A stretch of DNA of 64,000 nucleotides from Diabrotica undecimpunctata (taxonomy: Eukaryota; Arthropoda; Insecta; Coleoptera; Chrysomelidae). The DNA is taken from contig NC_092811.1 in the NCBI RefSeq assembly GCF_040954645.1, positions 121,231,411 to 121,295,410 on the forward strand. Reading direction: 5' to 3'. Made by a program: the position numbers and the translations under genes. This document shows, piece after piece, positions 18,662 through 64,000 of the stretch (position 1 is its first letter; every line of letters begins with the position of its first letter). A model generated the notes under the pieces. The model saw only the letters and a list, made by a program, of their open reading frames with translations. It did no database searches and had not been told where the DNA came from.

Positions 18662-19061
18662 TTATAATTCGTATTTCGTTTTGGGCCTCAATACTGATTT
18701 AGGTTGCATTTTGGGACTATTTGGTGGCGTATAATCTGGTTCAGGAATATAGGGCATGCCGTAGTTGTACATATTTGGCATATTTGGTACAGTCGGAGAA
18801 GGAACGCTACGTGGAGGAGATCTTCTGCCAGGCGCTTGTGCCTTACCGATCTTAGCCAACCTGCTTCCGTTCGAGGTGGGTCTTCCGAATTCGTAGGGGT
18901 GCAATGGATTCATTGCGCTATTGCTAAGTGGATTCATACCATTTGAACCTCTCGGTGCTTGACCTGGTGTAGGGCTAAATATGCCTTCCTCTGAGTCGAA
19001 TCCTCTGTTTTCGAAAGTGTTGTCTATTTGTACGTTGTCATAAAGACTAAATGGTGATTGC
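18662..19061 (-). CDS. Giant mucin gene, terminal exon: cytoplasmic tail
   Basis: A pyrimidine-rich tract ending TTTTAG lies just before 19061. The first base completes a Gly codon begun in the 44-base exon at 23850-23807, and 132 codons then run to a TAA at 18664-18662. The tail begins QSPFSLYDNVQIDNTFENRG and is rich in Pro, Ser and Asn, with NMPNMYNYGMPYIPEPDY and a basic, proline-directed stretch (RRSPPRS). It ends KTKYEL. It has no hydrophobic segment, fitting a cytoplasmic position after the transmembrane exon. The terminal Y-x-L fits a class II PDZ ligand pattern, but that is speculation. Internal methionines could make a shorter ORF appear as a separate gene; the upstream codons in the same frame and the phase match argue for the spliced model. 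The protein family is not recognised. Confidence 0.75.
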
Positions 19062-19289
19062 CTAAAACAAACAAAATAAAAAAAAATATTTTAAGAATGT
19101 AATGGTCCAGGATATGACGGTTCGCTGTTCAGAATTATTTCTACTTTTGTGGATTTACTTGAAATTTTGACAGTAGGTAGAAAATATCTCAATGATAATA
19201 AAATACTCTATGCCAATATGTGCTTTTCCTCTAGGGGTGGTTATCACCTCCAAAGTGGTGTGCAAGGATTGTACTCCCAAAATTAAGAA
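19062..19289. other. Intron start of the mucin gene, nothing else seen
   Basis: Sequence between the terminal exon and the first transposon fragment. No gene or repeat was recognised. Confidence 0.4.
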
Positions 19290-19945
19290 TTTGATTGGAA
19301 TCTCAACACGATGTTTTGGAGAGCGAAGTTCCATGTACTAAGGACATTACTAAGCAGGCCATGGACATGATACAACAAATGAAGTACCTTCGAAGTGAGC
19401 TGGACTCTTTGAATGGTTCTTTTCAGGCAAGCTTTAAAAAACTTAAATCTGAAAGATATAAGAGTGCCTCAAACAACTAGTCCCATGGAACAAAACACAA
19501 CAGACCATTCAGTGAAATGATCGAGAGACAGAAAAGATCCAACAATATTATGATTTTTAATATGCCTGAGTATGGTAAGAATGACTATTTAAACAAAGCT
19601 GGATATTATCTGGATTAATGAACTCAGCCATTGATATTTTTGAGGCTACACGAATTGGAAAAAAGAACAAAAATGACTATCTATCAATACTCAGAAACAG
19701 AAGTAATATTGACAGGTCATTAAAGATTTTTATCGATTTAGATCTCACCCCACCAGAGAATCGCATTAAACACTAGTCAAGAGAGTTCAACTTAAGGAAA
19801 GAGAGAGAAAAGATCAACTCCTAGAATAATGTCAAAAAACTAACACAGTTTTCACCTGGACTGTGAGTTTATTTTCAAAATAAAGAAGGTCTAAGAATGA
19901 AGCTTGACAGTTTATTTATGAATGTATTCCATTCTCATTACAGTA

Positions 19946-22900
19946 GGGGAGAGTGGGGCACATTCGGCCTGGGGGCAGATTCAGCCACTGCAAATAAAAT
20001 TTTAAATAAGCAGAATTTCGCAACCAATTTTCGCTAGAAATGTGGCAACAATCCATCTTCACTTTAGTTGTTGGTATTTCTGCAATAAACAGTGTCCAAA
20101 TATTTGTTTTGTTTTTAAGTTTGTTTTTTCAAGCTAAACGTAAGTTTTTAAAAAATATATATTTTATGTGATTTAGTGGGCCTGCGTAGCGCAAGCGGTA
20201 GGATGCTTGCCTCGCACGCCGGTGGTCCGGAGTTCGAATCCTACCGCCGGCAAGAACAACTAGACATTTTTAAAAATGTCTATAGGCCCCAGGTCGACTC
20301 AGCCTGAATAAAATGAGTACCTTGGGTAAAACCAGGGGTAATAATAGGCGGTTGAAGCGTAGCACTGGCCATGTTACCTTCCTTGTATACCGTAGGCCCT
20401 AGATATAGCAGACTACCCTGCTATACTCCCAAAGCCGCGAGGCGGTATAAAACGGGAGACTATTATTATTATGTGATTTAGTTAGTTGCTGTTCACATAT
20501 TTTTGTAAAAATTTGCTCATATTAGGTTGAAAATCTCTAGTTTCAGAATATGCATTGATATAACCTCTAACTTTGACCAGAAGGCCACAATAAATTTTTC
20601 ATGCTTGCAAAGTCAGGTGGGGTACTTTCGGCCGGCCTAACGGGGTACATTCGGCAGTGGCCGATTGTGCCCCACACTAATTTAGTAGTAGTTTTAGTGA
20701 TTATTTTGATATTTTTTTTGTATTGCGGATGGTAAGAAAGTACCAAAATAAAACAGATCGAGCAAATATAAGTGAGCAGCGCATAAAAGATGCTCTACAA
20801 AATGTCTTTTCAAGAGATATGTCCCAAAGAGAGGCAGCAAGAACGTTTAATTTAAAAAGACAAACTTTGCAAGCTCGCATGAAAAAAATATTAAGAACAA
20901 TGACGGTTGAAGAGTTTTTACAAAAGTTGACGATGATGGATACGAGAGCGAAAATGTCATAGTAGGTTAGTTGATGGTTCTTGTGTTTTAAATATTTTTT
21001 TGATGTACTTGTTTGTCATAGATGAATAAATATATGTTTTTTAGGCAAGTACGCTTGTATGAAGTGTATTTTCTTCCTCGCAAGAAGACATGCTAGTGGA
21101 TTACAAAAAGCAACGTTCTAATATGAATTAAGACTTAATCTACGAACAAATAAGATCAATGGTTTTTGACTACGCGAAGAATTTACCAAATTGCAAATAT
21201 CCAGGGAGCTGGGATATAAATATTAAGGCAGGAAGAGATTGGTTACTTGGCTTTATGAAAAAGCACTCTAATTTATCATTAAGAAAACCGGAAATCACGA
21301 GTTTGGCAAGAGGTCTCGGATTTAATGCTACCAGAGTAGAGAAATTTTTCCAAAATTACAAGACAGTGTTACAAAAATATAATTTTAGCCCTGATCGAAT
21401 CTTTAACTTGGGCGAAACAGGTGTAACAACAGTCCTACCCCCTCCCAAAATTGTAGCACCAAAGGGTAAGAAGCAAATAAGTCTAGTATCGTCAGCCGAA
21501 AGAGGTGAACTTGTAACAGTTGTCGGGGTTATAAGCGCAATAGGAAACGCATTATAACCGATTTACATATTTCCCATGGTAAGCAATATCGAAGACTATT
21601 TATATGAGGCACCGTCTTTAAGTGTAGCATTTGGAAATAAGTCGGGGTGGATCACTAAATACCTTTTTATTAAAACTCTGGGGCACGTTGTCAACCACAC
21701 AAAATGCGATAAGGAAAATAAAATATTATTGCTGCTGGACAACCATGAGTCGCACACTAGTCTAGACGCAATACTTTATACACAAAATCATGGGAATAGT
21801 AATGCTATGGTTTCCTCCGCATACTTCCCATAAACTACAACCACTTTATTTGTGAGTTTATGGGATTTTTAAGAGTAAATTTTCTTTTTCCTTAAATGAG
21901 TGGTTGATAAATAATCCGGGAAAAACTATTGCTGTTACAAATATCCCAAAAATTACAAAACATTCATTTTTAGAGACATTTTCCCTGAAAAATATTACAA
22001 GCTCTTTTGAAAAACCAGGAATATGGCGCCTTAATTCACAAGCATTTAGCGACGCAGATTTTGATGCCACTAAGGTCTATAAGAATGAATCAAGACGTGA
22101 AAATATCTCAAATCAAGATGCAGATTTTGAAATAAATATTTAGCCATCTACTTCAAAAAGTGTCGGCGTAGTCCGTAATGGCTCTGTACAAGATAATAAT
22201 GAAAAGTGGGGATCGAGGGCGACGAAACAGTTCCGAGCAAAATTCTAAGTCCTGAATATGTAAGATCTTTCCCAATAGTTGAAAAAAGTCAAGATAAAAA
22301 AAGAAAAATTAAAGCAAACCAAGGAAAATCTAGAATTTATACAGAAACCCCTGAAAAACAGCGATTGGAAGAAATAGAAAATGAAAAAAAAAGTGAAATC
22401 AGAAAAAGAGGACAGTAATCTAAGAAAGAAGCAAAAATTCTGAACCAATAGGGATGAACAAGCAAAGAAAGCAAAAATCCAAAAAATTAAAATAAAAGTT
22501 TTTTATGACAGCTCTAGCAGTGAATCGGAAGTGAGCATTTTTTGTGATGACTCGGATGACAATGAAAGTCTTGCATCTTTTGAATCCAGCGAGGAACTCA
22601 TAAAAGACACTTTCATATTATTAAAATTTGAACTGAAAACAACAATGTTTATTATGTTGAAAATGTGGTTGAAAAAGTATCTGATTCTGAATATTTTGTC
22701 AAATATTTGCGGCGCAGGGGAAATTTTAATAAATTTTATTTTCCTCAAATAGAGGATACAGAAACCTGCGAAAAATCAAGTATTCATGCCAGACTTACCA
22801 AATTATCTAAATCTCGAAGAGATTCGACGGTGACATTTCACTACAACTTTGAAGGAATTACGGTTAAGTAAATATCATTGTTAGTTATTAGTTAATAATG

Positions 22901-23288
22901 TTTTTTAGTTCATTAGTTCTTTTTTGATGTGCTAATTTTCTTACTTTTTCATATTTTGTACGTTCAAAACAATGATAACGTTTCTTTTAATAAACTGTTT
23001 AACTTGTAACAATGCCGTTTCTATATACCTTAAAACATTGCGGCCCAAAGTGCCCCTTGGCCTGGCTGATTGTACCCCCACTGGGGGCACAATCAGCCAG
23101 AGTGTAATATATATATTTTATTTATTTATTAACAAAAAACTAAAATATATTCAACAAAACTGTTTTACTTTTTAAATGGACAAAAGTATAAATTTTACTT
23201 TTTTGTTTTCAAATTAAATATAATGAAACATTTTTTGTATTTTTTTACCTAAAAACAATTATGGGGCCGAATGTGCCCCACTCTCCCC
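19946..23288 (+). mobile_element. pogo/Tigger-like DNA transposon, inactive
   Basis: Inverted ends ggggagagtggggcacattc at 19946 and the complement ending at 23288 are flanked by TA on both sides. Inside, a psq-type helix-turn-helix (ISEQRIKDALQNVFSRDMSQ at 20771, then REAARTFNLKRQTLQARMKK) is followed by a CENP-B-like region and a DDE_1 core at 21159-21860. The core reads RIFNLGETGVTTV, KILLLLDNHESH and PPHTSHKLQPLY. The first catalytic Asp is Gly (codon GGC at 21411) and the third is Tyr (TAT at 21847), with a stop two codons on; only the second (LDNHE, 21738) is kept. A C-terminal Lys/Glu-rich part runs to a stop near 22871. A SINE sits in the 5' part. Confidence 0.9.
20177..20470 (+). mobile_element. 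tRNA-derived SINE nested in the pogo element
   Basis: A tRNA-like head carries an A box (tagcgcaagcgg, 20187-20198) and a B box (agttcgaatcc, 20231-20241), giving an internal RNA polymerase III promoter. It is followed by an unrelated body with aggccccaggtcgactcagc and an (ATT)n tail. The target duplication ttatgtgatttag lies at 20164-20176 and 20469-20481. It is complete and probably younger than its host element. Confidence 0.9.
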
Positions 23289-23514
23289 TATTATCATATT
23301 CAACGAGACTTGGTTGACATGTATCTATGCCGATGAAGAGCTGCAGTTTTTTGACCTTAACATCAATGAACAGAACTGATCGTTCCAGGGAAACAAACGG
23401 AAAAATAATTTATATGGAAGACAATTTTTCTCTTACACAACGTTAAAACAAATTGATGCAACAAAAAAAGATATTGTCTACCTAGCATTTATTACAAATA
23501 TTTAAATTATAAAA

Positions 23515-23625
23515 AAGACATGTTCTATGAGGCACTAGACCGAGAGTACGATGAGTGCCCAAAAAATGATATCAAAATAATAGCAGGAGACTTTAATGCG
23601 AAAGTCGGAAGAGAGAATATATTTT
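23515..23625 (+). mobile_element. RTE endonuclease scrap
   Basis: The frame reads MFYEALDREYDECPKNDIKI then IAGDFNAKVGRENI, with the conserved GDFNAKVG box of RTE-type endonucleases. It is only about 35 codons. Confidence 0.7.
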
Positions 23626-23806
23626 CGTTCTTCAAATTATATCTAGTGTGTCATGCTATATCTAGTATGTATTGATCGATCACAAAATTAACAGATTTCA
23701 GTATAATGTGCGGAATATTTCACTAACTATTAGAACTATCGAAAAAATAATATGGAATATTCTTTATTTAATTATCAAATTAATTAGCCAATAAGTTAAT
23801 ACTTAC

Positions 23807-23850
23807 CCTGATTGATAGGCATTTATAGGTGAAAGTAGCGATCGCCGGGG
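23807..23850 (-). CDS. Giant mucin gene, 44-base exon
   Basis: On the minus strand a T-rich tract and TTTTTTAG precede 23850, and GTAAGT follows 23807, both near consensus. The 44 bases encode PRRSLLSPINAYQS plus two bases (GG) of a Gly codon, which the first base of the exon at 19061 completes. The upstream exon (25800-25663) ends on a codon boundary with RQRRK, so the join is RQRRK-PRRSLL, extending the basic juxtamembrane segment. The exon is too short for ORF finding. It is accepted because both splice sites and both phases fit. Confidence 0.7.
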
Positions 23851-25662: not shown

Positions 25663-25800
25663 CTTCCTTCTCTGTCGACATACAGAAACGATTAAAACGA
25701 TGACCATAACTACATTCAATATCCATAATATGTATCCTCTTGCAGCGACAGACATGACGATACCTAACGCCGTATATTCAGTCTGTAAGCTTTCTGCGGC
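25663..25800 (-). CDS. Giant mucin gene, transmembrane exon
   Basis: The minus strand has TTTATTTTTAG just before 25800 and GTGAGT directly after 25663. The 138 bases give 46 codons in phase 0, starting AAESLQTEYTALG and continuing to YILWILNVVMVIVLIVSVCR, then QRRK. That is about 18 hydrophobic residues followed by Cys and a cluster of Arg/Lys, which is a stop-transfer sequence. The repeat exon upstream ends in phase 0 (SIDPT then GTAAGT), so the reading frame passes through. The charge pattern puts the Ser/Thr repeats outside the cell and the RQRRK side in the cytoplasm (type I). The exon is too short to stand out as an ORF. The upstream intron would be 17.2 kb. An extra phase-0 exon between them cannot be excluded. 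Confidence 0.75.
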
Positions 25801-25802
25801 CT

Positions 25803-27175
25803 AAAAATAAAATAATCTAGAGATGTGTAATAGTAAAATCGCAAAATGGTCCCTTAAAAAAGCTCCGATTATAAATGTTAAAGCAAATATACAGACAAAT
25901 GAATTACCCAAAGTTTCCCATTTACCAGTTGTTGTATTATATGTTAAAGTATATGTATATATTGTATGTACAATAAACGCAAACACTTACATTTTATTTG
26001 ATCACAGTAATTATGACGCAAGTGTTTCAGTTGGCTACCTTGAAAAGTTTTAACTGTCGTCTGTCATCAGTTGTCACTATATTAGTCGTACGAATTGGAC
26101 TGTTTTCAGTGATTACCGTATTCAATTAGTGAACAACAACAAACAAAATTTACTACGTTAATATACATAATATGATAACTTAACGTGCGTGAACAATAAA
26201 AAAGCGATTTTGAAGTTATGTTAAGCTAGGTTCTACTTTAGCGCACGTGGGAAAGCAAAAGTTAATAATAATACTACGAGAACGGTTTTTAGATGATTGG
26301 AGATAAAAATAAGATAATATTTTTCACATTTATTCTCAAAGTAGCCAAACGTATTCAGTTTTTAGGTTAAATATTCCATATGCATGATTGTTTAATACTA
26401 ACAATGCAAATGTTATTTGAACGTAAAAACAATAATACTGGAACGTAGTGATATTATAAAGTGCTGTATGCTAAATAGTATACATCAAGGAAATACATGA
26501 AATAAATCATACAAATCTAGAGATACTTTTAAGGTGCTTTATGCAAGATAAAAGCCTAGCCAAACCTGCGTATCCTTTACCCGCTTTACCTTCTTTCATG
26601 TCACCTTAAACGTTCATTAAGATTTCTGTCGGCACACACCTTTATTTTATCATATTCGTGGGCATATATGCACCAAGTTAATCGAAGTTAAAAAAGGACT
26701 TAAGAAATATCGAAACTACTTCTAAAGAAGATGCCCAGATGACTAGGGAAGATCTAGCAGTCCCAACAAGTCGTCTTGTAGAGTAGTCTTATTTGAGATA
26801 ACAGCAAGATGATGTAGCTCAGAAATGTTTAACCAGAGCTCACACCATACCTTCATCTACTTTCCGAGGAAGAACGCAGGCAGCTAACCGAACTTAAGCG
26901 CTGATAAAACTTATTGGTGAAGGTCCATTTGCTCATTTGAAGGATGTTGACTAAAGGACAGGAACTTTGGGTTGATATGTATTGAGGAAGAGTATTTTAA
27001 TGCCAGAAAGGAATTTCTTCATGAAAAAAAGGAGTAGTACGAAGTTAACGCTGAAAAAATCCTTAAATCTAAATTGTGCTAACAAACCTTTCGGAGACCA
27101 AAAGGATTTTAAAGTGACATTAACCGGTCTTGATAAACGAAATAAAGAACTAAATCTGTCGTTTGGCAGCTGGAC
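25803..27175. other. Intron sequence, nothing recognised
   Basis: AT-rich sequence without a supported frame. Short frames at 25823-26053 and 26982-27236 show no family motif. Confidence 0.4.
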
Positions 27176-27179
27176 AGCA

Positions 27180-27960
27180 AAAACATATGAAAACTATAAT
27201 TACTATATATACAGTATGTCGAAAACCCACACATAACGACAGATATTTATACGCCTATTCATATCACCATCCTGTACATTTACATTCAGTCATTAAAACA
27301 CTGATTACAAGATACGAAAGACTTACAGACGAAGAACATAAAAATGAAGAAATACATAATGTGAAGGCTTCTCAATATACACCATCTAAAAGGCCCAGAA
27401 TGCTCAAAGGAGAATTATGAACCCAACAGAAGACGAAAAAACCGTTTGAAAAAACTATCATATCATCTGTAAAGGGTTCAACAGAGAAAATGACAAAAGG
27501 TGCTGAGAAAATACAAAAAAGAAACGATATTTAATACCGACGGAGAAGTCTCAACTATTTTACCATACGCAACAACAAAAAAATCATTAGAAAATCAAGG
27601 AGTATATGAGATTCTCTGTGGGGACTGTGACAAATCGTACATCGGATAGACCAATCGAAGAATCTATGTGAGACGAGAAGAAAATCGAAAGGAGAGAGAA
27701 AAGTCGCCTAAAAAAATGTGAAATCAGAGAAGCATTAAAAATTGAAAAAAATCCTAACAATCTAAATCAAAGAGATGATAGGTACTCAAAGGCTTCCGAT
27801 AATATGGAAAACGGTGTTGAAGAAGATTACCAAAGTAAACCAGGCAACAAGGCTGAAGAGTAGGACCCAACTTACCCATACACGTACAGGGCCAATCACA
27901 AGAGGCACTGCCAAGGGCCGCTTGATGGGATCGCGCCAAGATCTACCAGATAAAAGTTTT
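27180..27960 (+). mobile_element. Penelope-like element fragment (RT end and GIY-YIG)
   Basis: The frames read CRKPTHNDRYLYAYSYHHPV, the block that follows the RT core in Penelope-like proteins, then GVYEILCGDCDKSYIG and RRIYVRREENRKRE. The latter is the start of a GIY-YIG endonuclease domain with its CxxC-like finger. An EALKIEKNPNNLNQRDD-type end follows. A stop replaces the residue after YIG, and frames shift repeatedly. A poly-T/poly-G run at about 27957-27982 follows. Confidence 0.75.
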
Positions 27961-28046
27961 TTTTGGGGGAGGGGGGGGGGGGTAAATATGTCTTTATTAC
28001 TCTTGATTTAAGATTTTTGTCGATTTTGTCAGTGACACATTTGATG

Positions 28047-28495
28047 TAAAGCCGCGTTTATTGGCGAGACAATTGTCATTGGACAATTGTCATCACGTGG
28101 TTGCGGATTGTCGGAGGCCAGTCCAGTTGAACGAGAAGATGTTTATACGGGGCCAACTATTGCCATGGCAGTAGGCAGCTAAAACATGGTCGACTGCTCG
28201 TCATCTGTGGTGTCCGGTGAGGGAACTGGCAAAAAACAAGACAGCACTACTTGCCTACACCATTCACACGGCGCCAATTGTCGCGACAATTGAGATTTCG
28301 AGTGGTGGGGGGACTCACTGGGCGCAGCTCATTGTCCTCAGTCTACTCCCGGAGACAACTGAATTTTGGGCCAATTGTGAGGGCAGTTGGCAAGGCAATT
28401 GGCCTGAAGTGTTTAGACGAAGACAATAATTTCATGCCAGTCAGTTGTCTTATGACAATTGTCTCGCCAATTGTCATTGTCTAAACGCGGCTTTA
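28047..28495. mobile_element. MITE-like element with GCCGCGTTTA inverted ends
   Basis: The left end, taaagccgcgttta, at 28047 is the exact inverse of the right end, taaacgcggcttta, at 28482-28495. Both ends continue with partly complementary caattgtc-rich sequence, and gacaattgtc palindromes recur inside. There is no transposase frame in the 449 bp. No clear target duplication was seen, so the superfamily is open. Confidence 0.75.
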
Positions 28496-28689
28496 GGAAG
28501 AAAAATTTTCGTATGATGAAGGTCTGACTCGTTGGGTTGACATTGAGTGGGAGATTGATGTGGAGTAGAGAGCCCAGCGGGTCTACTTGCATCATCGCAA
28601 ATGTGCATTGATCTGGAGACAAGGTGACTGGATTCATTTGTGAAGGTAGGATGAGAGTTGGCATGCAAGTAACAATTGGTACAGAGTGA

Positions 28690-30170: not shown

Positions 30171-30264
30171 GAGATATTAAGAAAAAATGGTTCTCCTTTT
30201 TTTATTTTCAAATTCAAGATGGCGGCAACGCAAGGTTAGGCCTTTTTTTCGTCTAACTTTTCGC

Positions 30265-30660
30265 CTAATTTTTGTGAAAAGTTTATATATATGTGAAAGC
30301 AAACTGATAGGACGATAGTTTTTTAGATCTGTTATGTCTCCTTGCTTGTGTAATAAAATAATGACTGCATTGTTCCATTGAGAAGGATTTTTCCTTGGTA
30401 GATGCATTGGCTGAAAAGCTTGGCCAAAGCCTAGATAATTTTATCTTCACCTAGTTTGATCGCTTCGATCACTACTCCGTCATCGCCAGAGGATTTGTTA
30501 ATTTTCATTTCTAGAAGTGCCATTTTGATTTCGTATGTAGTTATTTCTGGCATTAATTCTGATCCCTGGTTTGTGATTTTAGGCAGGGGCTGATCCTGGC
30601 TTTCGTCGGTGCTCTCATACATTTTGCGATAAAAGGATTCGACAACTTTAAGGATTTTGG
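30265..30660 (-). mobile_element. LINE RT N-terminal fragment
   Basis: Minus frames read [47 protein letters not shown] and then [20 protein letters not shown] with [20 protein letters not shown]. These are the early RT motifs of an RTE/CR1-type LINE. A frameshift lies near 30430. It is truncated beyond the motif-1 region. Confidence 0.8.

Positions 30661-30852: not shown

Positions 30853-30853
<1 letters not shown>

Positions 30854-30925
<72 letters not shown>
30854..30925. repeat. (TA)n microsatellite
   Basis: About 36 TA units immediately left of the Penelope-like copy. Confidence 0.95.
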
Positions 30926-30927
<2 letters not shown>

Positions 30928-52000: not shown

Positions 52001-55000
52001 AAGTAGATGGTTCAACTGTAGACGGGGTTATTGTGGAAGTAGATGGTTCAGATGTTGATGGAGTTATTGTGGAAGTAGATGGTTCAGCTGTAGATTTAGT
52101 TATTGTGGACGTAGATGGTTCAGATGTTGATGGAGTTATTGTGGAAGTAGATGGTTCAGCTGTAGATATAGTTATTGTGGACGTAGATGGTTCAGATGTT
52201 GATGGAGTTATTGTGGAAGTAGATGGTTCAGCTGTAGATGGGGTTATTGTGGAAGTTGATGGTTCAGCTGTTGATGGAGTTATTGTGGAAGTAGATGGTT
52301 CAACTGTAGACGGGGTTATTGTGGAAGTAGATGGTTCAGATGTTGATGGAGTTATTGTGGAAGTAGATGGTTCAACTGTAGACGGGGTTATTGTGGAAGT
52401 AGATGGTTCAGATGTTGATGGAGTTATTGTGGAAGTAGATGGTTCAGCTGTAGATATAGTTATTGTGGACGTAGATGGTTCAGATGTTGATGGAGTTATT
52501 GTGGAAGTAGATGGTTCAGCTGTAGATATAGTTATTGTGGACGTAGATGGTTCAGATGTTGATGGAGTTATTGTGGAAGTAGATGGTTCAGCTGTAGATG
52601 GGGTTATTGTGGAAGTTGATGGTTCAGCTGTTGATAGAGTTATTGTGGAAGTAGATGGTTCAACTGTAGACGGGGTTATTGTGGAAGTAGATGGTTCAGA
52701 TGTTGATGGAGTTATTGTGGAAGTAGATGGTTCAGCTGTAGATATAGTTATTGTGGACGTAGATGGTTCAGATGTTGATGGAGTTATTGTGGAAGTAGAT
52801 GGTTCAGCTGTAGATGGGGTTATTGTGGAAGTTGATGGTTCAGCTGTTGATGGAGTTATTGTGGAAGTAGATGGTTCAACTGTAGACGGGGTTATTGTGG
52901 AAGTAGATGGTTCAGATGTTGATGGAGTTATTGTGGAAGTAGATGGTTCAGCTGTAGATATAGTTATTGTGGACGTAGATGGTTCAGATGTTGATGGAGT
53001 TATTGTGGAAGTAGATGGTTCAGCTGTAGATATAGTTATTGTGGACGTAGATGGTTCAGATGTTGATGGAGTTATTGTGGAAGTAGATGGTTCAGCTGTA
53101 GATATAGTTATTGTGGACGTAGATGGTTCAAATGTTGATGGAGTTATTGTGGAAGTAGATGGTTCAACTGTAGACGGGGTTATTATGGAAGTAGATGGTT
53201 CAGATGTTGATGGAGTTATTGTGGAAGGAGATGGTTCAGCTGTAGATATAGTTATTGTGGACGTAGATGGTTCAGATGTTGATGGAGTTATTGTGGAAGT
53301 AGATGGTTCAGCTGTAGATGGGGTTATTGTCGAAGTTGATGGTTCAGCTGTTGATGGAGTTATTGTGGAAGTAGATGGTTCAACTGTAGACGGGGTTATT
53401 GTGGAAGTAGATGGTTCAGATGTTGATAAAGTTATTGTGGAAGTAGATGGTTCAACTGTAGACGGGGTTATTGTGGAAGTAGATGGTTCAGATGTTGATG
53501 GAGTTATTGTGGAAGTAGATGGTTCAGCTGTAGATATAGTTATTGTGGACGTAGATGGTTCAGATGTTGATGGAGTTATTGTGGAAGTAGATGGTTCAGC
53601 TGTAGATGGGGTTATTGTGGAAGTTGATGGTTCAGCTGTTGATGGAGTTATTGTGGAAGTAGATGGTTCAACTGTAGACGGGGTTATTGTGGAAGTAGAT
53701 GGTTCAGATGTTGATGGAGTTATTGTATAAGTAGATGGTTCAACTGTAGACGGGGTTATTGTGGAAGTAGATGGTTCAGATGTTGATGGAGTTATTGTGG
53801 ACGTAGAGGGTTCAACTGTAGACGGGGTTATTGTGGAAGTAGATGGTTCAGATGTTGATGGAGTTATTGTGGAAGTAGATGGTTCAGCTGTAGATATAGT
53901 TATTGTGGACGTAGATGGTTCAGATGTTGATGGAGTTATTGTGGAAGTAGATGGTTCAGCTGTAGATATAGTTATTGTGGACGTAGATGGTTCAGATGTT
54001 GATGGAGTTATTGTGGAAGTAGATGGTTCAGCTGTAGATGGGGTTATTGTGGAAGTTGATGGTTCAGCTGTTGATAGAGTTATTGTAGAAGTAGATGGTT
54101 CAACTGTAGACGGGGTTATTGTGGAAGTAGATGGTTCAGATGTTGATGGAGTTATTGTGGAAGTAGATGGTTCAGCTGTAGATATAGTTATTGTGGACGT
54201 AGATGGTTCAGATGTTGATGGAGTTATTGTGGAAGTAGATGGTTCAGCTGTAGATATAGTTATTGTGGACGTAGATGGTTCAGATGTTGATGGAGTTATT
54301 GTGGAAGTAGATGGTTCAACTGTAGACGGGGTTATTATGGAAGTAGATGGTTCAGATGTTGATGGAGTTATTGTGGAAGTAGATGGTTCAGCTGTAGATA
54401 TAGTTATTGTGGACGTAGATGGTTCAGATGTTGATGGAGTTATTGTGGAAGTAGATGGTTCAGCTGTAGATGGGGTTATTGTGGAAGTTGATGGTTCAGC
54501 TGTTGATGGAGTTATTGTGGAAGTAGATGGTTCAACTGTAGACGGGGTTATTGTGGAAGTAGATGGTTTAGATGTTGATGGAGTTATTGTGGAAGTAGAT
54601 GGTTCAACTGTAGACGGGGTTATTGTGGAAGTAGATGGTTCAGATGTTGATGGAGTTATTGTGGAAGTAGATGGTTCAGCTGTAGATATAGTTATTGTGG
54701 ACGTAGATGGTTCAGATGTTGATGGAGTTATTGTGGAAGTAGATGGTTCAGCTGTAGATATAGTTATTGTGGACGTAGATGGTTCAGATGTTGATGGAGT
54801 TATTGTGGAAGTAGATGGTTCAGCTGTAGATGGGGTTATTGTGGAAGTTGATGGTTCAGCTGTTGATGGAGTTATTGTGGAAGTAGATGGTTCAACTGTA
54901 GACGGGGTTATTGTGGAAGTAGATGGTTCAGATGTTGATGGAGTTATTGTGGAAGTAGATGGTTCAACTGTAGACGGGGTTATTGTGGAAGTAGATGGTT

Positions 55001-58000
55001 CAGATGTTGATGGAGTTATTGTGGAAGTAGATGGTTCAGCTGTAGATATAGTTATTGTGGACGTAGATGGTTCAGATGTTGATGGAGTTATTGTGGAAGT
55101 AGATGGTTCAGCTGTAGATGGGGTTATTGTGGAAGTTGATGGTTCAGCTGTTGATGGAGTTATTGTGGAAGTAGATGGTTCAACTGTAGACGGGGTTATT
55201 GTGGAAGTAGATGGTTCAGATGTTGATGGAGTTATTGTGGAAGTAGATGGTTCAACTGTAGACGGGGTTATTGTGGAAGTAGATGGTTCAGATGTTGATG
55301 GAGTTATTGTGGACGTAGAGGGTTCAGCTGTAGATGATGTCAATGTGGATAAGGTAGATGCAGGAGTAGTAGTTGTTGTGGACGTAGAGGGTTCAGCTGT
55401 AGATGATGTCAATGTGGATAAGGTAGACGCAGGAGTAGTAGTTGTTGTGGACCTAGACGTCTCAGCTGAAGAGGACGTTATTGTGGGAGTAGATGATTCA
55501 GCTGTAGATGATGTCAATGTGGATAAGGTAGACGCAGGAGTAGTTGTTGTTGTGGACGTAGACGTCTCAGCTGAAGAGGACGTTATTGTGGAAGTAGATG
55601 GTTCAGCTGTAGATGATGTCAATGTGGATAAGGTAGACGCAGGAGTAGTAGTTGTTGTGGACGTAGACGTCTCAGCTGAAGAGGACGTTATTGTGGAAGT
55701 AGATGGTTCAGCTGTAGATGATGTCAATGTGGATAAGGTAGACGCAGGAGTAGTAGTTGTTGTGGACGTAGACGTCTCAGCTGAAGAGGACGTTATTGTG
55801 GAAGTAGATGGTTCAGCTGTAGATGATGTCAATGTGGATAAGGTAGACGCAGGAGTAGTAGTTGTTGTGGAAGTAGACGTCTCAGCTGAAGAGGACGTTA
55901 TTGTGGAAGTAGATGGTTCAGCTGTAGATGATGTCAATGTGGATAAGGTAGACGCAGGAGTAGTAGTTGTTGTGGACGTAGACGTCTCAGCTGAAGAGGA
56001 CGTTATTGTGGAAGTAGATGGTTCAGCTGTAGATGATGTCAATGTGGATAAGGTAGACGCAGGAGTAATATTTGTTGTGGACGTAGACGTCTCAGCTGAA
56101 GAGGACGTTATTGTGGAAGTAGATGGTTCAGCTGTAGATGATGTCAATGTGGATAAGGTAGACGCAGGAGTATTATTTGTTGTGGACGTAGATGGTTCAG
56201 CTGAAGAGGACGTTATTGTGGAAGTAGATGGTTCAGCTGTAGATGATGTCAATGTGGATAAGGTAGACGCACGAGTAGTAGTTGCTGTGGACGTAGACGT
56301 GTCAGCTGAAGAGGACGTTATTGTGGAAGTAGATGGTTCAGCTGTAGTTGATGTCAATGTGGATAAGGTAGACGCAGGAGTAGTAGTTGTTGTGGACGTA
56401 GACGTCTCAGCTGAAGAGGACGTTATTGTGGAAGTAGGTGGTTCAGCTGTAGATGATGTCAATGTGGATAAGGTAGACGCAGGAGTAGTAGTTGTTGTGG
56501 ACGTAGACGTCTCAGCTGAAGAAGATGTTATTGTGGAAGTAGATGGTTCAGCTGTAGATGATGTCAATGTGGATAAGGTAGACGCAGGAGTAGTAGTTAT
56601 TGTGGAAGTAGATGGTTCAGCTGAAGAGGACGTTATTGTGGAAGTAGATGGTTCAGCTGTAGATGATGTCAATGTGGATAAGGTAGACGCAGGAGTAGCA
56701 GTTGTTGTGGAAGTAGATGGTTCAGCTGTAGATGATGTCAATGTGGATAAGGTAGACGCAGGAGTAGTAGTTGTTATGGACGTAGATGATTCAGCTGAAG
56801 AGGAGGTTATTGTGGAAGTAGATGGTTCAGCTGTAGATGATGTCAATGTGGATAAGGTAGACGCAGGAGTGGTAGTTGTTGTGGACGTAGATGATTCAGC
56901 TGAAGAGGAGGTTATTGTGGAAGTAGATGGTTCAGCTGTAGATGATGTCAATGTGGATAAGGTAGACGCAGGAGTAGTAGTTGTTGTGAAAGTAGATGGT
57001 TCAGCTGTAGATGATGTCAATGTGGATAAGGTAGACGCAGGAGTAGTAGTTGTTATGGACGTAGATGTCTCAGCTGAAGAGGACGTTATTGTGGAAGTAG
57101 GTGGTTCAGCTGTAGATGATGTCAATGTGGATAAGGTAGACGCAGGAGTAGTAGTTGTTGTGGACGTAGATGGTTCAGCTGAAGAGGACGTTATTGTGGA
57201 AGTAGATGGTTCAGCTGTAGATGATGTCAATGTGGATAAGGTAGACGCAGGAATAGTAGTTGTTGTGGACGTAGATGTCTCAGCTGAAGAGGACGTTATT
57301 GTGGAAGTAGGTGGTTCAGCTGTAGATGATGTCAATGTGGATAATGTAGACGCAGGAGTAGTAGTTGTTGTGGACGTAGACGTCTCAGCTGAAGATGTTA
57401 TTGTGGAAGTAGATGGTTCAGTTGTAGATGATATCAATGTGGATAAGGTAGACGCAGGAGTAGTAGTTATTGTGGAAGTAGATGGTTCAGCTGAAGAGGA
57501 CGTTATTGTGGAAGTAGATGGTTCCGCTGTAGATGATGTCAATGTGGATAAGGTAGACGCAGGAGTAGTAGTTGTTGTGGACGTAGATGATTCAGCTGAA
57601 GAGGACGTTATTGTGGAAGTAGATGGTTCAGCTGTAGATGATGTCAATGTGGATAAGGTAGACGCAGGAGTAGTAGTTGTTGTGGACGTAGATGTTTCAG
57701 CTGAAGAGGACGTTATTGTGGAAGTAGATGGTTCAGCTGTAGATGATGGTAATGTGGATAAGGTAGACGCAGGAGTAGTAGTTGTTGTGGACGTAGACGT
57801 CTCAGCTGAAGAGGACGTTATTGTGGAAGTAGATGGTTCAGCTGTAGATGATGTCAATGTGGATAAGGTGGATGCAGGAGTAGTAGTTGTTGCGGACGTA
57901 GATGATTCAGCTGAAGTGGAGGTTATTGTGGAAGTAGATGGTTCAGCTGTAGATGATGTCAATGTGGATAAGGTAGATGCAGGAGTAGAAGTTGTTGTGA

Positions 58001-61000
58001 ACGTAGACGGTTCAGCTGTAGATGATGTCAATGTGGATAAGGTAGACGCAGGAGTAGTAGTTGTTGTGGACGTAGACGTCTCAGCTGAAGATGACGTTAT
58101 TGTGGAAGTAGATGGTTCAGCTGTAGATGATGTCAATGTGGATAAGGTAGATGCAGGAGTAGTAGTTGTTGTGGACGTAGACGTCTCAGCTGAAGAGGAC
58201 GTTATTGTGGAAGTAGATGGTTCAGCTGTAGATGATGTCAATGTGGATAAGGTAGACGCAGGTGTAGTTGTTGTTGTGGACGTAGACGTCTCAGCTGAAG
58301 AGGACGTTATTGTGGAAGTAGATGGTTCAGCTGTAGATGATGTCAATGTGGATAAGGTGGATGCAGGAGTAGTAGTTGTTGTGGACGTAGATGTTTCAGC
58401 TGAAGAGGAGGTTATTGTGGAAGTAGATGGTTCAGCTGTAGATGATGTCAATGTGGATAAGGTAGATGCAGGAGTAGAAGTTGTTGTGGACGTAGAGGGT
58501 TCAGCTGTAGATGATGTCAATGTGGATAAGGTAGACGCAGGAGTAGTAGTTGTTGTGGACGTAGACGTCTCAGCTGAAGATGACGTTATTGTGGAAGTAG
58601 ATGGTTCAGCTGTAGATGATGTCAATGTGGATAAGGTAGATGCAGGAGTAGTAGTTGTTGTGGACGTAGACGTCTCAGCTGAAGAGGACGTTATTGTGGA
58701 AGTAGATGGTTCAGCTGTAGATGATGTCAATGTGGATAAGGTAGACGCAGGAGTAGTTGTTGTTGTGGACGTAGACGTCTCAGCTGAAGAGGACGTTATT
58801 GTGGAAGTAGATGGTTCAGCTGTAGATGATGTCAATGTGGATAAGGTAGACGCAGGAGTAGTAGTTGTTGTGGACGTAGATGTTTCAGCTGAAGAGGAGG
58901 TTATTGTGGAAGTAGATGGTTCAGCTGTAGATGATGTCAATGTGGATAAGGTAGACGCAGGAGTAGTTGTTGTTGTGGACGTAGACGTCTCAGCTGAAGA
59001 GGACGTTATTGTGGAAGTAGATGGTTCAGCTGTAGATGAAGTCAATGTGGATAAGGTGGATGCAGGAGTAGTAGTTGTTGTGGACGTAGATGATTCAGGT
59101 GAAGAGGAGGTTATTGTGGAAGTAGATGGTTCAGCTGTAGATGATGTCAATGTGGATAAGGTAGATGCAGGAGTAGTAGTTGTTGTGGACGTAGAGGGTT
59201 CAGCTGTAGATGATGTCAATGTGGATAAGGTAGACGCAGGAGTAGTTGTTGTTGTGGACGTAGACGTCTCAGCTGAAGAGGACGTTATTGTGGAAGTAGA
59301 TGGTTCAGCTGTAGATGACGTCAATGTGGATAAGGTAGACGCAGGAGTAGTTGTTGTTGTGGACGTAGACGTCTCAGCTGAAGAGGACGTTATTGTGGAA
59401 GTAGATGGTTCAGCTGTAGATGATGTCAATGTGGATAAGGTAGACGCAGGAGTAGTAGTTGTTGTGGACGTAGACGTCTCAGCTGAAGAGGACGTTATTG
59501 TGGAAGTAGATGGTTCAGCTGTAGATGATGTCAATGTGGATAAGGTAGACGCAGGAGTAGTAGTTGTTGTGGACGTAGACGTCTCAGCTGAAGAGGACGT
59601 TATTGTGGAAGTAGATGGTTCAGCTGTAGATGATGTCAATGTGGATAAGGTAGACGCAGGAGTAGTAGTTGTTGTGGACGTAGACGTCTCAGCTGAAAAG
59701 GACGTTATTGTGGAAGTAGATGGTTCAGCTGTAGATGATGTCAATGTGGATAAGGTAGACGCAGGAGTAGTAGTTGTTGTGGAAGTAGACGTCTCAGCTG
59801 AAGAGGACGTTATTGTGGAAGTAGATGGTTCAGCTGTAGATGATGTCAATGTGGATAAGGTAGACGCAGGAGTAGCAGTTGTTGTGGAAGTAGATGGTTC
59901 AGCTGTAGATGATGTCAATGTGGATAAGGTAGACGCAGGAGTAGTAGTTGTTATGGACGTAGATGATTCAGCTGAAGAGGAGGTTATTGTGGAAGTAGAT
60001 GGTTCAGCTGTAGATGATGTCAATGTGGATAAGGTAGACGCAGGAGTGGTAGTTGTTGTGGACGTAGATGAGTCAGCTGAAGAGGAGGTTATTGTGGAAG
60101 TAGATGGTTCAGCTGTAGATGATGTCAATGTGGATAAGGTAGACGCAGGAGTAGTAGTTGTTGTGGAAGTAGATGGTTCAGCTGTAGATGATGTCAATGT
60201 GGATAAGGTAGACGCAGGAGTAGTAGTTGTTATGGACGTAGATGATTCAGCTGAAGAGGAGGTTATTGTGGAAGTAGATGGTTCAGCTGTAGATGATGTC
60301 AATGTGGATAAGGTAGACGCAGGAGTAGTAGTTATTGTGGAAGTAGATGGTTCAGCTGTAGATGATGTCAATGTGGATAAGGTAGACGCAGGAGCAGTAG
60401 TTGTTGTGGACGTAGATGTCTCAGCTGAAGAGGACGTTATTGTGGAAGTAGACGGTTCAGCTGTAGATGATGTCAATGTGGATAAGGTAGACGCAGGAGT
60501 AGTAGTTGTTATGGATGTAGATGGTTCAGCTGTAGATGATGTCAATGTGGATAAGGTAGGCGCAGGAGTAGTAGTTGTTGTGGAAGTAGATGGTTCAGCT
60601 GATGAGGACGTTATTGTGGAAGTAGATGGTTCAGCTGTAGATGATGTCAATGTGGATAAGGTAGACGCAGGAGTAGTAGTTGTTGTGGACGTAGATGATT
60701 CAGCTGACGAGGACGTTATTGTGGACGTAGATAGTTCAGCTGTAGACGAATTTATTGTGGAAGTAGATGGTTTACCTGTAGATGGAGTTATTGTGGACGT
60801 AGATTGTTCAGCTGTAAATGGTGTCATTGTGGATAAGGTAGACGCAGGAGTAGTAGTTGTTGTGGAAGTAGATGGTTCAGCTGCAGATGATGTCAATGTG
60901 GATAAAGTAGACGCAGAAGTAGTAGTTATTGTGGACGTAGATTGTTCAGCTGTAAATGGTGTCATTGTGGATAAGGTAGACGCAGGAGTAGTAGTTGTTG

Positions 61001-64000
61001 TGGAAGTAGATGGTTCAGCTGCAGATGATGTCAATGTGGATAAAGTAGACGCAGGAGTAGTAGTTGTTGTGGAAGTAGATGGTTCAGCTGTAGATGATGT
61101 CAATGTGGATAAAGTAGACGCAGGAGTAGTAGTTGTTGTGGAAGTAGATGGTTCAGCTGCAGATGATGTCAATGTGGATAAAGTAGACGCAGGAGTAGTA
61201 GTTGTTGTGGAAGTGGATGGTTCAGCTGATGAGGACGGTATTGTGGAAGTAGATGATTCAGCTGTAGATGATGTAAATGTGGATAAGCTAGACGCAGGAG
61301 TAGTAGTTGTTGTGAAAGTAGATGGTTCAGCTGGAGATGTCGTTAGTGTGGACGAAGATGGTTTAGCTGTAGACAAAGTTATTGTAGAAGTAGATGGTTT
61401 ACCTGTATATGGAGTTATTGTGGACGTAGATGGTTCATCTGTAGATGACGTCAATGTGGATAAGGTAGACGCAGGAGTAGTAGTTGTGGAGGTAGATGGT
61501 TCAGCTGAAGAGGACGTTAGTGTGGACGAAGATGGTTTAGCTGTAGACGAAGTTATTGTGGAAGTAGATGGTTTAGCTGTATATGGAGTTATTGTGGACG
61601 TAGATGGTTCATCTGTAGATGACGTCAATGTGGATAAGGTAGACGAAGGAGTAGTAGTTGTGGAAGTAGATGGTTTAGCTGAAGAGGACGGTATTGTGGA
61701 AGTAGATGGTTCAGCTGTAGATGATGTAAATGTGGATAAGCTAGACGCAGGAGTAGTAGTTGTGGAAGTAGATGGTTCAGCTGAAGAGGACGTTGGTGTG
61801 GACGAAGATGGTTTAGCTGTAGACGAAGTTGTTGTGGAAGTAGATGGTTTAGCTGTATATGGAGTTATTGTAGACGTAGATAATTCATCTGTAGATGACG
61901 TCAATGTGGATAAGGTAGACGCAGGAGTAGTAGTTGTGGAGGTAGATGGTTCAGCTGAAGAGGACGTTAGTGTGGACGAAGATGGTTTAGCTGTAGACGA
62001 AGTTGTTGTGGAAGTAGATGGTTTAGCTGTATATGGAGTTATTGTGGACGTAGATGGTTCATCTGTAGATGACGTCAATGTGGATAAGGTAGACGCAGGA
62101 GTAGTAGTTGTGGAAGTAGATGGTTTAGCTGAAGAGGACGGTATTGTGGAAGTAGATGGTTCAGCTGTAGATGATGTAAATGTGGATAAGGTAGACGCAG
62201 GAGTAGTAGTTGTGGGAGTAGATGGTTCAGCTGAAGAGGACGTTAGTGTGGACGAAGATGGTTTAGCTGTAGACGAAGTTGTTGTGGAAGTAGATGGTTT
62301 AGCTGTATATGGAGTTATTGTGGACGTAGATGGTTCATCTGTAGACGACGTCAATGTGGATAAGGTAGACGCAGGAGTAGTTGTTGTGGACGTAGATGAT
62401 TCAGCTGAAGAGGACGTTGTTGTGGACATTGATGGTTCAGCTGTAGATGATGTCAATGTGGATAAGGTAGACGCAGGAGTAGTAGTTGTTGTGGACGGAG
62501 ATGATTCAGCAGAAGAGGACGTTATTGTGGATGTAGATGGTTCAGCTGTAGATGATGTCAATGTGGATAAGCTAGACGCAGGAGTAGTAGTTGTTGTTGA
62601 AGTAGATGTTTTAGCTGTAGGTGATGTCAATGTGAATAAAGTAGACGCAGGAGTAGTAGTTGTTGTGGAAGTAGACGGTTCAGCTGGAGAGGACGGTATT
62701 GTGGAAGTAGATGGTTCAGCTGTAGATGATGTCAATGTGGATAAGCTAGTCGCAGGAGTAGTAGTTGTTATGGAAGTAGATGGTTCAGCTGTAGATGATG
62801 TCAATGTGAATAAAGTAGACGCAGGAGTAGTAGTTGTTGTGGAAGTAGACGGTTCAGCTGGAGAGGACGGTATTGTGGAAGTAGATTGTTCAGCTGTAGA
62901 TGATGTCAATGTGGATAAGCTAGACGCAGGAGTAGTAGTTGTTGTGGAAGTAGATGGTTCAGCTGGAGAGGACGGTATTGTGGAAGTAGATGGTTCAGCT
63001 GTAGATGATGTCAATGTGGATAAAGTAGACGCAGGAGTAGTAGTTGTTGTGGAAGTAGATGGTTCAGCTGCAGATGATGTCAATGTGGATAAAGTAGACG
63101 CAGGAGTAGTAGTTGTTGTGGAAGTAGATGGTTCAGCTGGAGAGGACGGTATTGTGGAAGTAGATGGTTCAGCTGGAGATGATGTCAATGTGGATAAGCT
63201 AGACGCAGGAGTAGTAGTTGTTGTGGAAGTAGACGGTTCAGCTGGAGAGGACGGTATTGTGGAAGTAGATTGTTCAGCTGTAGATGATGTCAATGTGGAT
63301 AAGCTAGACGCAGGAGTAGTAGTTGTTGTGGAAGTAGACGGTTCAGCTGGAGAGGACGGTATTGTGGAAGTAGATTGTTCAGCTGTAGATGATGTCAATG
63401 TGGATAAAGTAGACGCAGGAGTAGTAGTTGTTGTGGAAGTAGACGGTTCAGCTGGAGAGGACGGTATTGTGGAAGTAGATTGTTCAGCTGTAGATGATGT
63501 CAATGTGGATAAGCTAGACGCAGGAGTAGTAGTTGTTGTGGAAGTAGACGGTTCAGCTGGAGAGGACGGTATTGTGGAAGTAGATGGTTCAGCTGGAGAT
63601 GATGTCAATGTGGATAAAGTAGACGCAGGAGTAGTAGTTGTTGTGGAAGTAGACGGTTCAGCTGGAGAGGACGGTATTGTGGAAGTAGATTGTTCAGCTG
63701 TAGATGATGTCAATGTGGATAAAGTAGACGCAGGAGTAGTAGTTGTTGTGGAAGTAGACGGTTCAGCTGGAGAGGACGGTATTGTGGAAGTAGATGGTTC
63801 AGCTGGAGATGATGTCAATGTGGATAAAGTAGACGCAGGAGTAGTAGTTGTTGTGGAAGTAGACGGTTCAGCTGGAGAGGACGGTATTGTGGAAGTAGAT
63901 TGTTCAGCTGTAGATGATGTCAATGTGGATAAAGTAGACGCAGGAGTAGTAGTTGTTGTGGAAGTAGACGGTTCAGCTGGAGAGGACGGTATTGTGGAAG
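43033..64000 (-). CDS. Giant mucin gene, repeat exon (partial, continues beyond the window)
   Basis: One minus-strand frame is open for 20,968 bases, about 6,989 codons, with no stop. At the window edge it still reads repeat (TIPSSPAEPSTST...), so the protein start and signal peptide lie outside. The apparent start near 63923 is a TTG leucine codon, not a start. Nearly all of it is 12-residue units such as STSTITPSTSEP, or 35-residue blocks of 12+12+11 units ending TTTTTPASTLSTLTS. Ser and Thr make up roughly two thirds, most units hold one Glu and one or two Pro, and Cys is almost absent, as in O-glycosylated mucin domains. The last 150 codons before the donor at 43032 are unique (PPPIPVRTTTIGRSFATSSS; NNRPVFDVHDLSPLLDNSAF). 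Splicing to 25800-25663 adds a membrane anchor. The likely role is a cell-surface or luminal mucin; the family is not recognised. The repeat count may be affected by assembly. Confidence 0.85.
43495..55320 (-). repeat. 36-bp tandem array (12-residue mucin units)
   Basis: About 325 to 330 head-to-tail units of 36 bp, all in the same codon phase. On the plus strand the core looks like gttattgtggaagtagatgg then ttcagctgtagatgga. Variants alternate (AEP, SEP and VEP; TITP and TITI), and higher-order periods are visible: a marker variant at 46651 recurs at 47767 (31 units) and 48487 (20 units). Rare 6-bp insertions (near 43800 and 44200) keep the frame. Confidence 0.95.
55321..61300 (-). repeat. 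105-bp / 69-bp higher-order array
   Basis: Blocks of 35 residues (12+12+11) alternate with shorter 23-residue blocks (12+11). The plus-strand marker gatgatgtcaatgtggataa identifies each block. It clearly derives from the same 12-residue unit, with the third unit shortened to 11 residues (TPASTLSTLTS). Length changes are multiples of three throughout. Confidence 0.9.
61301..64000 (-). repeat. Composite mucin repeat zone up to the window edge
   Basis: At 61350-62380 longer composite units occur, with STDEPSTSTITPYTAKPSTS and SSTAKPSSSTLTSSSAEPST. From about 62640 to the edge, regular 35-residue units with STAEQSTSTIPSSPAEPSTS take over. Copies near the edge are very similar, which suggests recent amplification. 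Confidence 0.85.

What the first reader, a model, noticed from the sequence alone, without database searches (positions are those of the whole stretch)
18662..64000. A hidden multi-exon gene: giant repeat exon joined to a transmembrane exon, a 44-base exon and a cytoplasmic-tail exon
The repeat ORF alone looks like a curiosity. Reading the minus strand downstream gives three short exons with good acceptors and donors: 25800-25663, 23850-23807 and 19061-18662. Phases agree exactly: the repeat exon ends in phase 0, the transmembrane exon is 138 bases, the next is 44 bases and leaves two bases, and the last starts with the one missing base. The result is a type I membrane mucin of more than 7,100 residues with a roughly 150-residue tail. 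Introns of 17.2, 1.8 and 4.7 kb are filled with transposons.
Basis: partly seen in the sequence, partly recalled or inferred. Interest (0 to 1): 0.88.

Follow-up and report, generated by a model that had tools for sequence, protein, structure and literature searches.

The report
Beetle four-pass protein with giant mucin loop
A leaf-beetle gene of about 94 kb appears to encode an 8,285-residue protein that crosses the cell membrane four times and carries an enormous sugar-ready mucin chain as a loop between its third and fourth membrane crossings, rather than as the free outer end seen in ordinary membrane mucins.

Summary
The splicing claim holds; the topology claim does not. The three downstream exons and the donor at 43032 are present and in phase. 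Proteins found by similarity contain sequence homologous to TM4 + 44-base exon + tail as one continuous chain. Those proteins have four transmembrane segments, so I looked upstream in the host assembly and found the missing exons in order on the same strand: start, TM1, TM2, TM3. The 8-exon model (all GT-AG, phases agree) encodes 8,285 residues. One exon is 23,808 bp: 7,936 residues, 63% Ser+Thr, 12-residue repeats, exactly between TM3 and TM4. All 542 repeat anchors found are in one frame and the Ser/Thr frame has dN/dS 0.41-0.49, so it looks like constrained coding sequence. Relatives in Chrysomelidae and Cerambycidae have loops of 28-380 residues there; two neighbouring paralogues have TM3-loop-TM4 in one exon. 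This is a polytopic, doubly anchored mucin, not a type I mucin. Its role as a surface glycocalyx is inferred; no RNA evidence was available.

The parts
43032..64000 (-). Giant mucin exon (exon 5 of 8), seen part; continues beyond the window to 66839 (23,808 bp, 7,936 codons in all, phase 0 at both ends)
   Evidence: 0 stops in 7,936 codons; acceptor TTTTCTAG ending at 66840, donor GTAAGT at 43031; 542 of 542 repeat anchors in one frame, dN/dS 0.41-0.49
43032..43483 (-). Non-repetitive end of exon 5: juxtamembrane part of the extracellular loop before TM4
   Evidence: tandem array bounded at 43483; reading frame continues to the donor
25663..25800 (-). Exon 6: fourth transmembrane segment (AARGYILWILN) and start of the basic cytoplasmic side
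   Evidence: tblastn match by 11 of 11 family proteins at E<=0.01; hydropathy maximum 2.76
23807..23850 (-). Exon 7: 44-base exon, PRRSLLSPINAYQS plus two bases, part of the tail
   Evidence: homologous residues contiguous in the relatives; too short to be matched alone
18662..19061 (-). Exon 8: proline-rich cytoplasmic tail, ending ...KTKYEL, stop TAA
   Evidence: tblastn match by 10 of 11 family proteins at E<=0.01; E 1.4e-35 for the C-terminal 274 residues in a 5.8-billion-protein database
18401..18661 (-). Presumed 3' untranslated region with an ATTAAA hexamer at 18406
   Evidence: pattern only
25801..43031 (-). Intron 5 (17,231 b) with a transposase remnant and a non-LTR-type reverse transcriptase, both on the + strand
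   Evidence: RVT_1 at 39808-40692, DDE_Tnp_1_7 at 41728-42045; the name piggyBac for the latter is recalled
19062..23806 (-). Intron 7 (4,745 b) with a DDE_1 (pogo/Tigger-like, recalled) transposase remnant on the + strand
   Evidence: PF03184 at 21558-21830, 21.9 bits against a cut-off of 22

Best explanation
The locus is one gene of eight coding exons over 94,268 bp on the minus strand of a leaf-beetle chromosome. It encodes an 8,285-residue four-pass membrane protein. TM1-TM3 and TM4 plus a proline-rich cytoplasmic tail are a small beetle tetraspan protein of unknown function; a single 23.8-kb exon inserts a 7,936-residue Ser/Thr/Pro/Glu repeat between TM3 and TM4, that is in the second extracellular loop. 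Mechanism, most likely: TM3 starts translocation of the loop into the ER (no signal peptide is needed), the roughly 5,000 Ser/Thr are O-glycosylated into a bottle-brush on a negatively charged backbone, and TM4 stops translocation, so that the brush stands on the cell surface as a loop held at both feet. The conserved tail, whose last residues (Y-E/V-L/F/Y in most members) look like a class II PDZ ligand, ties it to a scaffold under the membrane. The product would be a very tall glycocalyx that lubricates and repels, and that a single proteolytic cut in the loop cannot release. Because exon 5 is a phase 0/0 cassette, skipping it gives in frame a 349-residue mucin-free tetraspan like that of Phaedon. 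Shown: gene structure by homology and splice sites, conservation of the non-repeat parts, frame and amino-acid constraint in the repeat. Inferred from charge and family topology: extracellular position of the loop. Inferred only: glycosylation, scaffold binding, barrier role, exon skipping.
For: Full model, all GT-AG, start phases 0,0,1,1,0,0,0,2, one stop at the end. Joined exons 1-4 match 11 of 11 family proteins (33-52% identity over 131-149 residues) and exons 6-8 match 11 of 11 (40-51%; P0008 over 79 residues only). Four hydrophobic segments in the full model; four long helices in the AlphaFold model of the Psylliodes relative (mean pLDDT 58.2, pTM 0.45), with the TM3-TM4 loop and most of the tail below 50. 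Basic residues flank the cytoplasmic sides (RKKWKAVSK between TM2 and TM3; CRQRRKPRR after TM4). Relatives have loops of 28-380 residues at the same place, 18-49% S+T, and one annotated Gonioctena locus has two loop versions of 89 and 380 residues. Repeat: 62.7% S+T, 12% P, 1 Cys in 7,936, E+D 542 against K+R 45; 542 of 542 anchors in one frame, 0 of 541 spacings off a multiple of 3; dN/dS 0.49 and 0.41 in the coding frame, the lowest of the six frames in both unit classes (ten other frame tests: nine from 0.86 to 2.43, one 0.53).
Against: No RNA or protein evidence for this species was available. Exon 1 rests on a 17-residue match (E 0.034, P0002 only) plus start, donor and phase. The exon 5 acceptor has a modest pyrimidine tract and the exon 4 donor is GTAACA. 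No relative with a loop above 380 residues was found, so the giant state is seen in one assembly only; the three protein searches admit only candidates of limited length, so giant relatives would have been missed. Whether exon 5 is in most mRNAs is unknown. The PDZ-ligand motif is a recalled pattern. Unit pairs in the dN/dS test share ancestry and gene conversion, so the ratio is indicative. The AlphaFold confidence is low overall and the fold searches settle nothing.
Confidence: 0.72

Rival explanations
1. Type I single-pass mucin: signal peptide, repeat ectodomain, one TM, tail.
For: The window alone shows repeat, one TM, tail; transmembrane mucins in the review passages seen have an N-terminal signal and a transmembrane region (PMC10609567).
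Against: TM1-TM3 exons upstream in order, same strand, agreeing phases, and the same N-terminal part matched by 11 of 11 retrieved proteins.
Confidence: 0.04
2. The main product is the small tetraspan; exon 5 is a cassette that is normally skipped or used in few tissues, so the giant protein is rare.
For: Exon 5 is phase 0/0 and a multiple of 3; 10 of the 11 retrieved models have loops of only 28-154 residues, and Gonioctena has two loop versions annotated.
Against: Frame and amino acids of the 24-kb exon look constrained, which asks for regular use in some tissue.
Confidence: 0.2
3. The repeat is a satellite-like expansion in an intron that happens to be open, with no coding role.
For: 36-base tandem array; long open frames also on the + strand.
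Against: The other minus-strand frames hold about 500 stops each; 0 of 541 spacings break the frame, third positions vary most and dN/dS is lowest in the coding frame; the array is flanked by splice sites in the phases that the tetraspan needs.
Confidence: 0.04

Closest known systems
Uncharacterised chrysomeloid tetraspan family (Phyllotreta, Psylliodes, Diorhabda LOC130898764, Gonioctena JTB14_013683, Phaedon, Aromia, Anoplophora LOC108908303, Molorchus, Exocentrus, one unnamed source)
   Same: Orthologue-like: same four TMs, same tail, loop at the same place, mostly Ser/Thr-enriched; the window row falls in a set of five with Phyllotreta, Psylliodes, Diorhabda and P0003 (support 100/99, midpoint root).
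   Different: Loop 7,961 residues against 28-380.
Vertebrate transmembrane mucins (MUC1, MUC4, MUC16 type)
   Same: Long PTS tandem repeat, membrane anchor, cytoplasmic tail.
   Different: N-terminal signal and a transmembrane region there (PMC10609567 passages; single-pass with a free outer end is recalled); here four TMs and the repeat is a loop fixed at both ends. No SEA or VWD match in the parts scanned.
Drosophila Muc/Mur mucins (PMC2515642)
   Same: Meets their composition and repeat criteria.
Pasiflora / Fire exit tetraspans of the septate junction (PMC4582180)
   Same: Insect tetraspan topology, N and C termini inside.
   Different: No PW at the start of TM3, no VxSQYQ after TM4, and the second rather than the first loop is the larger here.

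Membership tests
[quoted passage not shown]
   62.7% S+T in the 7,936-residue exon; 12-residue period, 542 anchors
Mucin (Drosophila survey criteria, PMC2515642) | PTS repeat makes up more than one third of the protein | tested here: met
   exon 5 is 7,936 of 8,285 residues, about 96%, nearly all of it repeat
Mucin | dense O-glycosylation | not testable with these tools
   composition only
Vertebrate-type transmembrane mucin | N-terminal signal sequence and single TM near the C-terminus | tested here: not met
   four hydrophobic segments, three before the repeat; no signal-peptide predictor was run
Vertebrate-type transmembrane mucin | SEA or VWD domain | tested here: inconclusive
   no such Pfam match in the non-repeat parts; the repeat itself was not scanned
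Chrysomeloid four-pass family (P0001-P0011) | TM1-TM3, loop, AARGY[IV]L in TM4, tail with [LV]AKIGK and IP.PDY[TS]PP | tested here: met
   the later tail is missing in P0008, whose model is fused or broken
Pasiflora | PW motif at the start of TM3 | tested here: not met
   0 of 11 loci (10 family loci and the window gene; P0006 is the same locus as P0005) has P before the TM3 W
Pasiflora | VxSQYQ or VxS motif at the TM4 end, larger first loop | tested here: not met
   no VxSQYQ at the TM4 end in the alignments; in the window gene the second loop is the larger. The short VxS form was not scanned for systematically
DUF4728 (PF15860) | Pfam gathering score 26.7 | tested here: not met
   best 12.3 bits, P0005 only; 10 of 11 family rows plus the window core scanned, P0006 not
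Tetraspanin (PF00335) | gathering score 32.1; CCG and disulphide-bonded second loop | tested here: not met
   13.6 bits in P0003 only; the full protein has 4 Cys, one of them in the loop; the CCG hallmark is recalled
MS4A, claudin, sarcospan and other four-helix folds | structural match to solved members | tested here: inconclusive

The most novel reading that the evidence does not exclude
A new architectural class of membrane mucin: a polytopic, doubly anchored looped mucin, in which a micrometre-long glycan brush is an extracellular loop of a tetraspan protein, evolved in leaf beetles by putting one 23.8-kb repeat exon into the ancestral TM3-TM4 exon, with exon skipping as a switch between a bare tetraspan and a giant mucin.
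Probability: 0.6. Interest if true: 0.78.

Novelty: new variant of a known kind. Interest (0 to 1): 0.68.

Why it matters
Membrane mucins are thought of as chains with a free outer end that can be shed by one cut. A mucin held at both feet has different mechanics (loop brush, height at most half the contour length, resistant to shedding) and does not need a signal peptide or a SEA cleavage module. It offers an insect model of a membrane mucin, where the fly was reported to appear to lack them, and a series of loops (28 to about 8,000 residues) within two beetle families in which to study how mucins arise from short disordered loops. It also shows how a window or gene model cut at a repeat can hide such a protein.

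Tried and rejected
Type I topology: rejected by the upstream TM1-TM3 exons. Extra Ser/Thr-coding exons between exon 4 and exon 5: among the open frames of 40 or more residues listed from 66840 to 84000 on the minus strand the highest S+T+P fraction is 0.35, so none looks like mucin; shorter exons are not excluded. Pasiflora, DUF4728 and tetraspanin membership: not met. Solved structures by sequence: no match for the C-terminal part or for P0001 at E<=1. Fold search: four-helix bundles of many kinds; MS4A, claudins, dystrophin-complex subunits, tetraspanins, EBP and designed bundles all appear, none stands out. Rfam and tRNA scans of the window: nothing. Genome-wide count of paralogues and of the repeat: not obtained. 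In alignment A1 the extracellular window residues were laid against TM1-TM3 of the relatives; that part is a misalignment and was not used.

Literature: the searches listed no paper on this gene family or on a multi-pass mucin; the library holds open-licence papers only and I went by the listings. Passages were seen of PMC4582180, PMC2515642, PMC9339309 and PMC10609567.

Rows dropped before counts: P0006 (same locus as P0005) from the structure alignment and the tree, P0008 from the structure alignment and trimmed in the tree; P0008 left out of the C-terminus count.
Full report
WHAT WAS CLAIMED. A minus-strand giant repeat exon ending at 43032, spliced to exons 25800-25663, 23850-23807 and 19061-18662, giving a type I membrane mucin. 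I checked sequence, phases and homology, and then went outside the window.

THE OBSERVATION. The repeat frame is open from the window edge (64000) to 42909 (7,029 codons stop to stop). TRF finds one array of period 36 from 43483 to the edge. Donors and acceptors are canonical. The two other minus-strand frames of the repeat have about 500 stops each, so openness is not a trivial result of a stop-free repeat.

HOMOLOGY. The 274 residues after the repeat were searched against 5.77 billion proteins, candidates being limited by length; one hit at E<=10, P0001 of Phyllotreta striolata, E 1.4e-35, 46% identity over 204 residues that span both joins between TM exon, 44-base exon and tail. P0001 (443 residues) has three more hydrophobic stretches before its short loop. 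A search with P0001 gave 8 proteins (itself included) and one with a 7-row alignment gave 11 at E<=1 (each scored only the roughly 8,000 candidates sharing most words): Chrysomelidae (Phyllotreta, Psylliodes, Diorhabda, Gonioctena twice from one locus, Phaedon), Cerambycidae (Aromia, Anoplophora, Molorchus, Exocentrus) and an unnamed source (P0003) (the family assignments of the genera are recalled). P0003 is an uninterrupted 367-residue frame on contigs of at most 1,309 bases, which suggests a spliced transcript, an inference of mine.

THE MISSING EXONS. The host assembly is held (1.74 Gb, window = C9:121231411-121295410). I fetched 200 kb on the 5' side (195 kb of it new) and ran tblastn with the 11 proteins. 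Phases agree at all seven junctions; the coding sequence is 24,858 b, 8,285 residues plus stop. Introns are 14,415, 5,794, 8,339, 17,074, 17,231, 1,812 and 4,745 b; the coding gene spans 94,268 b. At E<=0.01 exon 2 is matched by 10 of 11 proteins, exon 3 by 10, exon 4 by 7, exon 6 by 11, exon 8 by 10; exon 1 only at E 0.034 by P0002. Joined, exons 1-4 match 11 of 11 (33-52% identity) and exons 6-8 match 11 of 11 (40-51%; P0008 over 79 residues) in a blastp against these 11. Reversed queries: 0 matches against 60 forward, the forward ones including the paralogue stretches below.

THE REPEAT. Exon 5 encodes 7,936 residues: T 34.0%, S 28.7%, P 11.9%, E 6.6%, I 6.4%, A 6.1%; one Cys, four N-X-S/T sites. 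Periodicity is 12 residues (STITPSTAEPST-like); a 69-base spacing (23 residues) is the second commonest, seen in the printed samples of the N-terminal half. An 18-base anchor (up to 4 mismatches) occurs 542 times, always in one frame; 0 of 541 spacings break the frame. Between units of equal length (425 of 36 b, 102 of 69 b, at most 5,000 sampled pairs or all pairs) dN/dS is 0.49 and 0.41 in the coding frame; the ten other frame tests gave 0.53 to 2.43, nine of them 0.86 or more. These pairs are not independent. The result fits purifying selection on the amino acids.

TOPOLOGY. Hydrophobic segments: about 20-38, 89-107, 122-140 and 8115-8133. Between TM2 and TM3 there are 5 K/R and no D/E in 14 residues, and after TM4 6 K/R and no D/E in 18; the first loop stretch examined has 3 K/R and 2 D/E in 46; the N-terminal 13 residues are balanced, 1 against 1. 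By the positive-inside rule the C-terminus is cytoplasmic and the TM3-TM4 loop extracellular. The AlphaFold model of the Psylliodes relative (9-row alignment; mean pLDDT 58.2, pTM 0.45) has long helices 2-39, 76-105, 109-148 and 170-212; residues 150-169 (TM3-TM4 loop), 216-350 and 365-379 (tail) are below pLDDT 50. Fold searches return four-helix bundles of many kinds and settle nothing.

EVOLUTION. Loop lengths between TM3 and TM4: 28 (Phaedon), 36, 44, 47, 72, 72, 89, 97, 98, 154, 380 (second Gonioctena version), 7,961 here, with 18-49% Ser+Thr in the relatives. On the tree of 11 rows (P0006 dropped as same locus, P0008 trimmed, midpoint root) the window gene falls with Phyllotreta, Psylliodes, Diorhabda and P0003, support 100/99, so the host is most likely a leaf beetle of the Galerucinae in the wide sense (inference with recalled taxonomy). 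Two paralogue stretches lie upstream on the same strand: at 160.2-159.9 kb (matched by 11 of 11 proteins at E<=0.01) and at 187.8-187.6 kb (1 of 11), the latter with candidate TM1 and TM2 exons at 193.2 and 192.6 kb that match only weakly (E 0.7-0.9). In both, TM3, a loop of some 10-20 residues and TM4 are in one exon, opened by an AG after which two bases complete the codon, as in exon 4, and followed by a GT in phase 0, as after exon 6 (read by eye). The simplest reading is that the giant gene split an ancestral TM3-TM4 exon by acquiring a Ser/Thr exon that later expanded.

TAIL. Conserved blocks include a YD or YE motif followed by an ID/IG, NPLS, [LV]AKIGK, and IPxPDY[TS]PPxSP; not each is in every member. 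The C-terminus is Y-[EV]-[LFY] in seven of ten loci (P0002, P0003, P0004, P0005, P0010, P0011, window); P0001 and P0007 run on, P0009 ends TVL (P0008, broken, is not among the ten). That fits a class II PDZ ligand (recalled motif).

MECHANISM AND SIZE. At about 0.25 nm per residue for a dense mucin (recalled), 7,936 residues give a contour of about 2 micrometres and a loop height of at most about 1 micrometre. I judge: gene structure and four-pass model 0.9; giant isoform made in some tissue 0.78; surface-brush role 0.6; PDZ tethering 0.35.

STANDING. By the composition criteria of the Drosophila survey (PMC2515642, passages read) this is a mucin; [quoted passage not shown] Transmembrane mucins as described in PMC10609567 (passages and a figure legend) have an N-terminal signal, a transmembrane region and SEA/VWD domains. 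Pasiflora proteins (PMC4582180, passages) are insect tetraspans with motifs that are absent here. Nine searches of an open-licence library listed no paper on this family or on a multi-pass mucin.

Noticed in passing
extended coordinates 160239-159916 and 187844-187617 (loci L013, L015): Paralogues of the tetraspan without a mucin exon, TM3 and TM4 in one exon; a local cluster of four-pass genes.
   Followed up: partly
window 38097-42045 (+): A transposase remnant (DDE_Tnp_1_7 at 41728-42045; piggyBac-type, recalled) with a reverse transcriptase (RVT_1 at 39808-40692) just before it on the same strand, perhaps one element nested in another.
   Followed up: partly
window 13870-14133 (-): Tyrosine-recombinase (Phage_integrase, E 1.2e-6) fragment, perhaps of a Crypton- or DIRS-like element, beyond the gene's 3' end.
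   Followed up: no
window 15792-16142 (-): DDE_3 transposase fragment (E 6.7e-10), beyond the gene's 3' end.
   Followed up: no
window 20177-20250 (+): tRNA-like (SINE-like) stretch with a B-box-like GTTCGAATCC, read by eye; ARAGORN reports no tRNA.
   Followed up: no
window 12618-12679, 25519-25595, 30854-30925, 42262-42470: Perfect or near-perfect TA microsatellites, two of them within about 70 and 560 bases of splice donors; a further TA run lies just upstream of the exon 5 acceptor (about 66900-66995).
   Followed up: no
window 53731-63999 (+): The antisense strand of the repeat is also open over long stretches (3,423 codons to the edge); selection points to the Ser/Thr frame.
   Followed up: partly
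P0005 and P0006 (Gonioctena quinquepunctata JTB14_013683): Two models of one locus that differ only in the loop from just after TM3 on, as if alternative Ser/Thr exons were used.
   Followed up: partly
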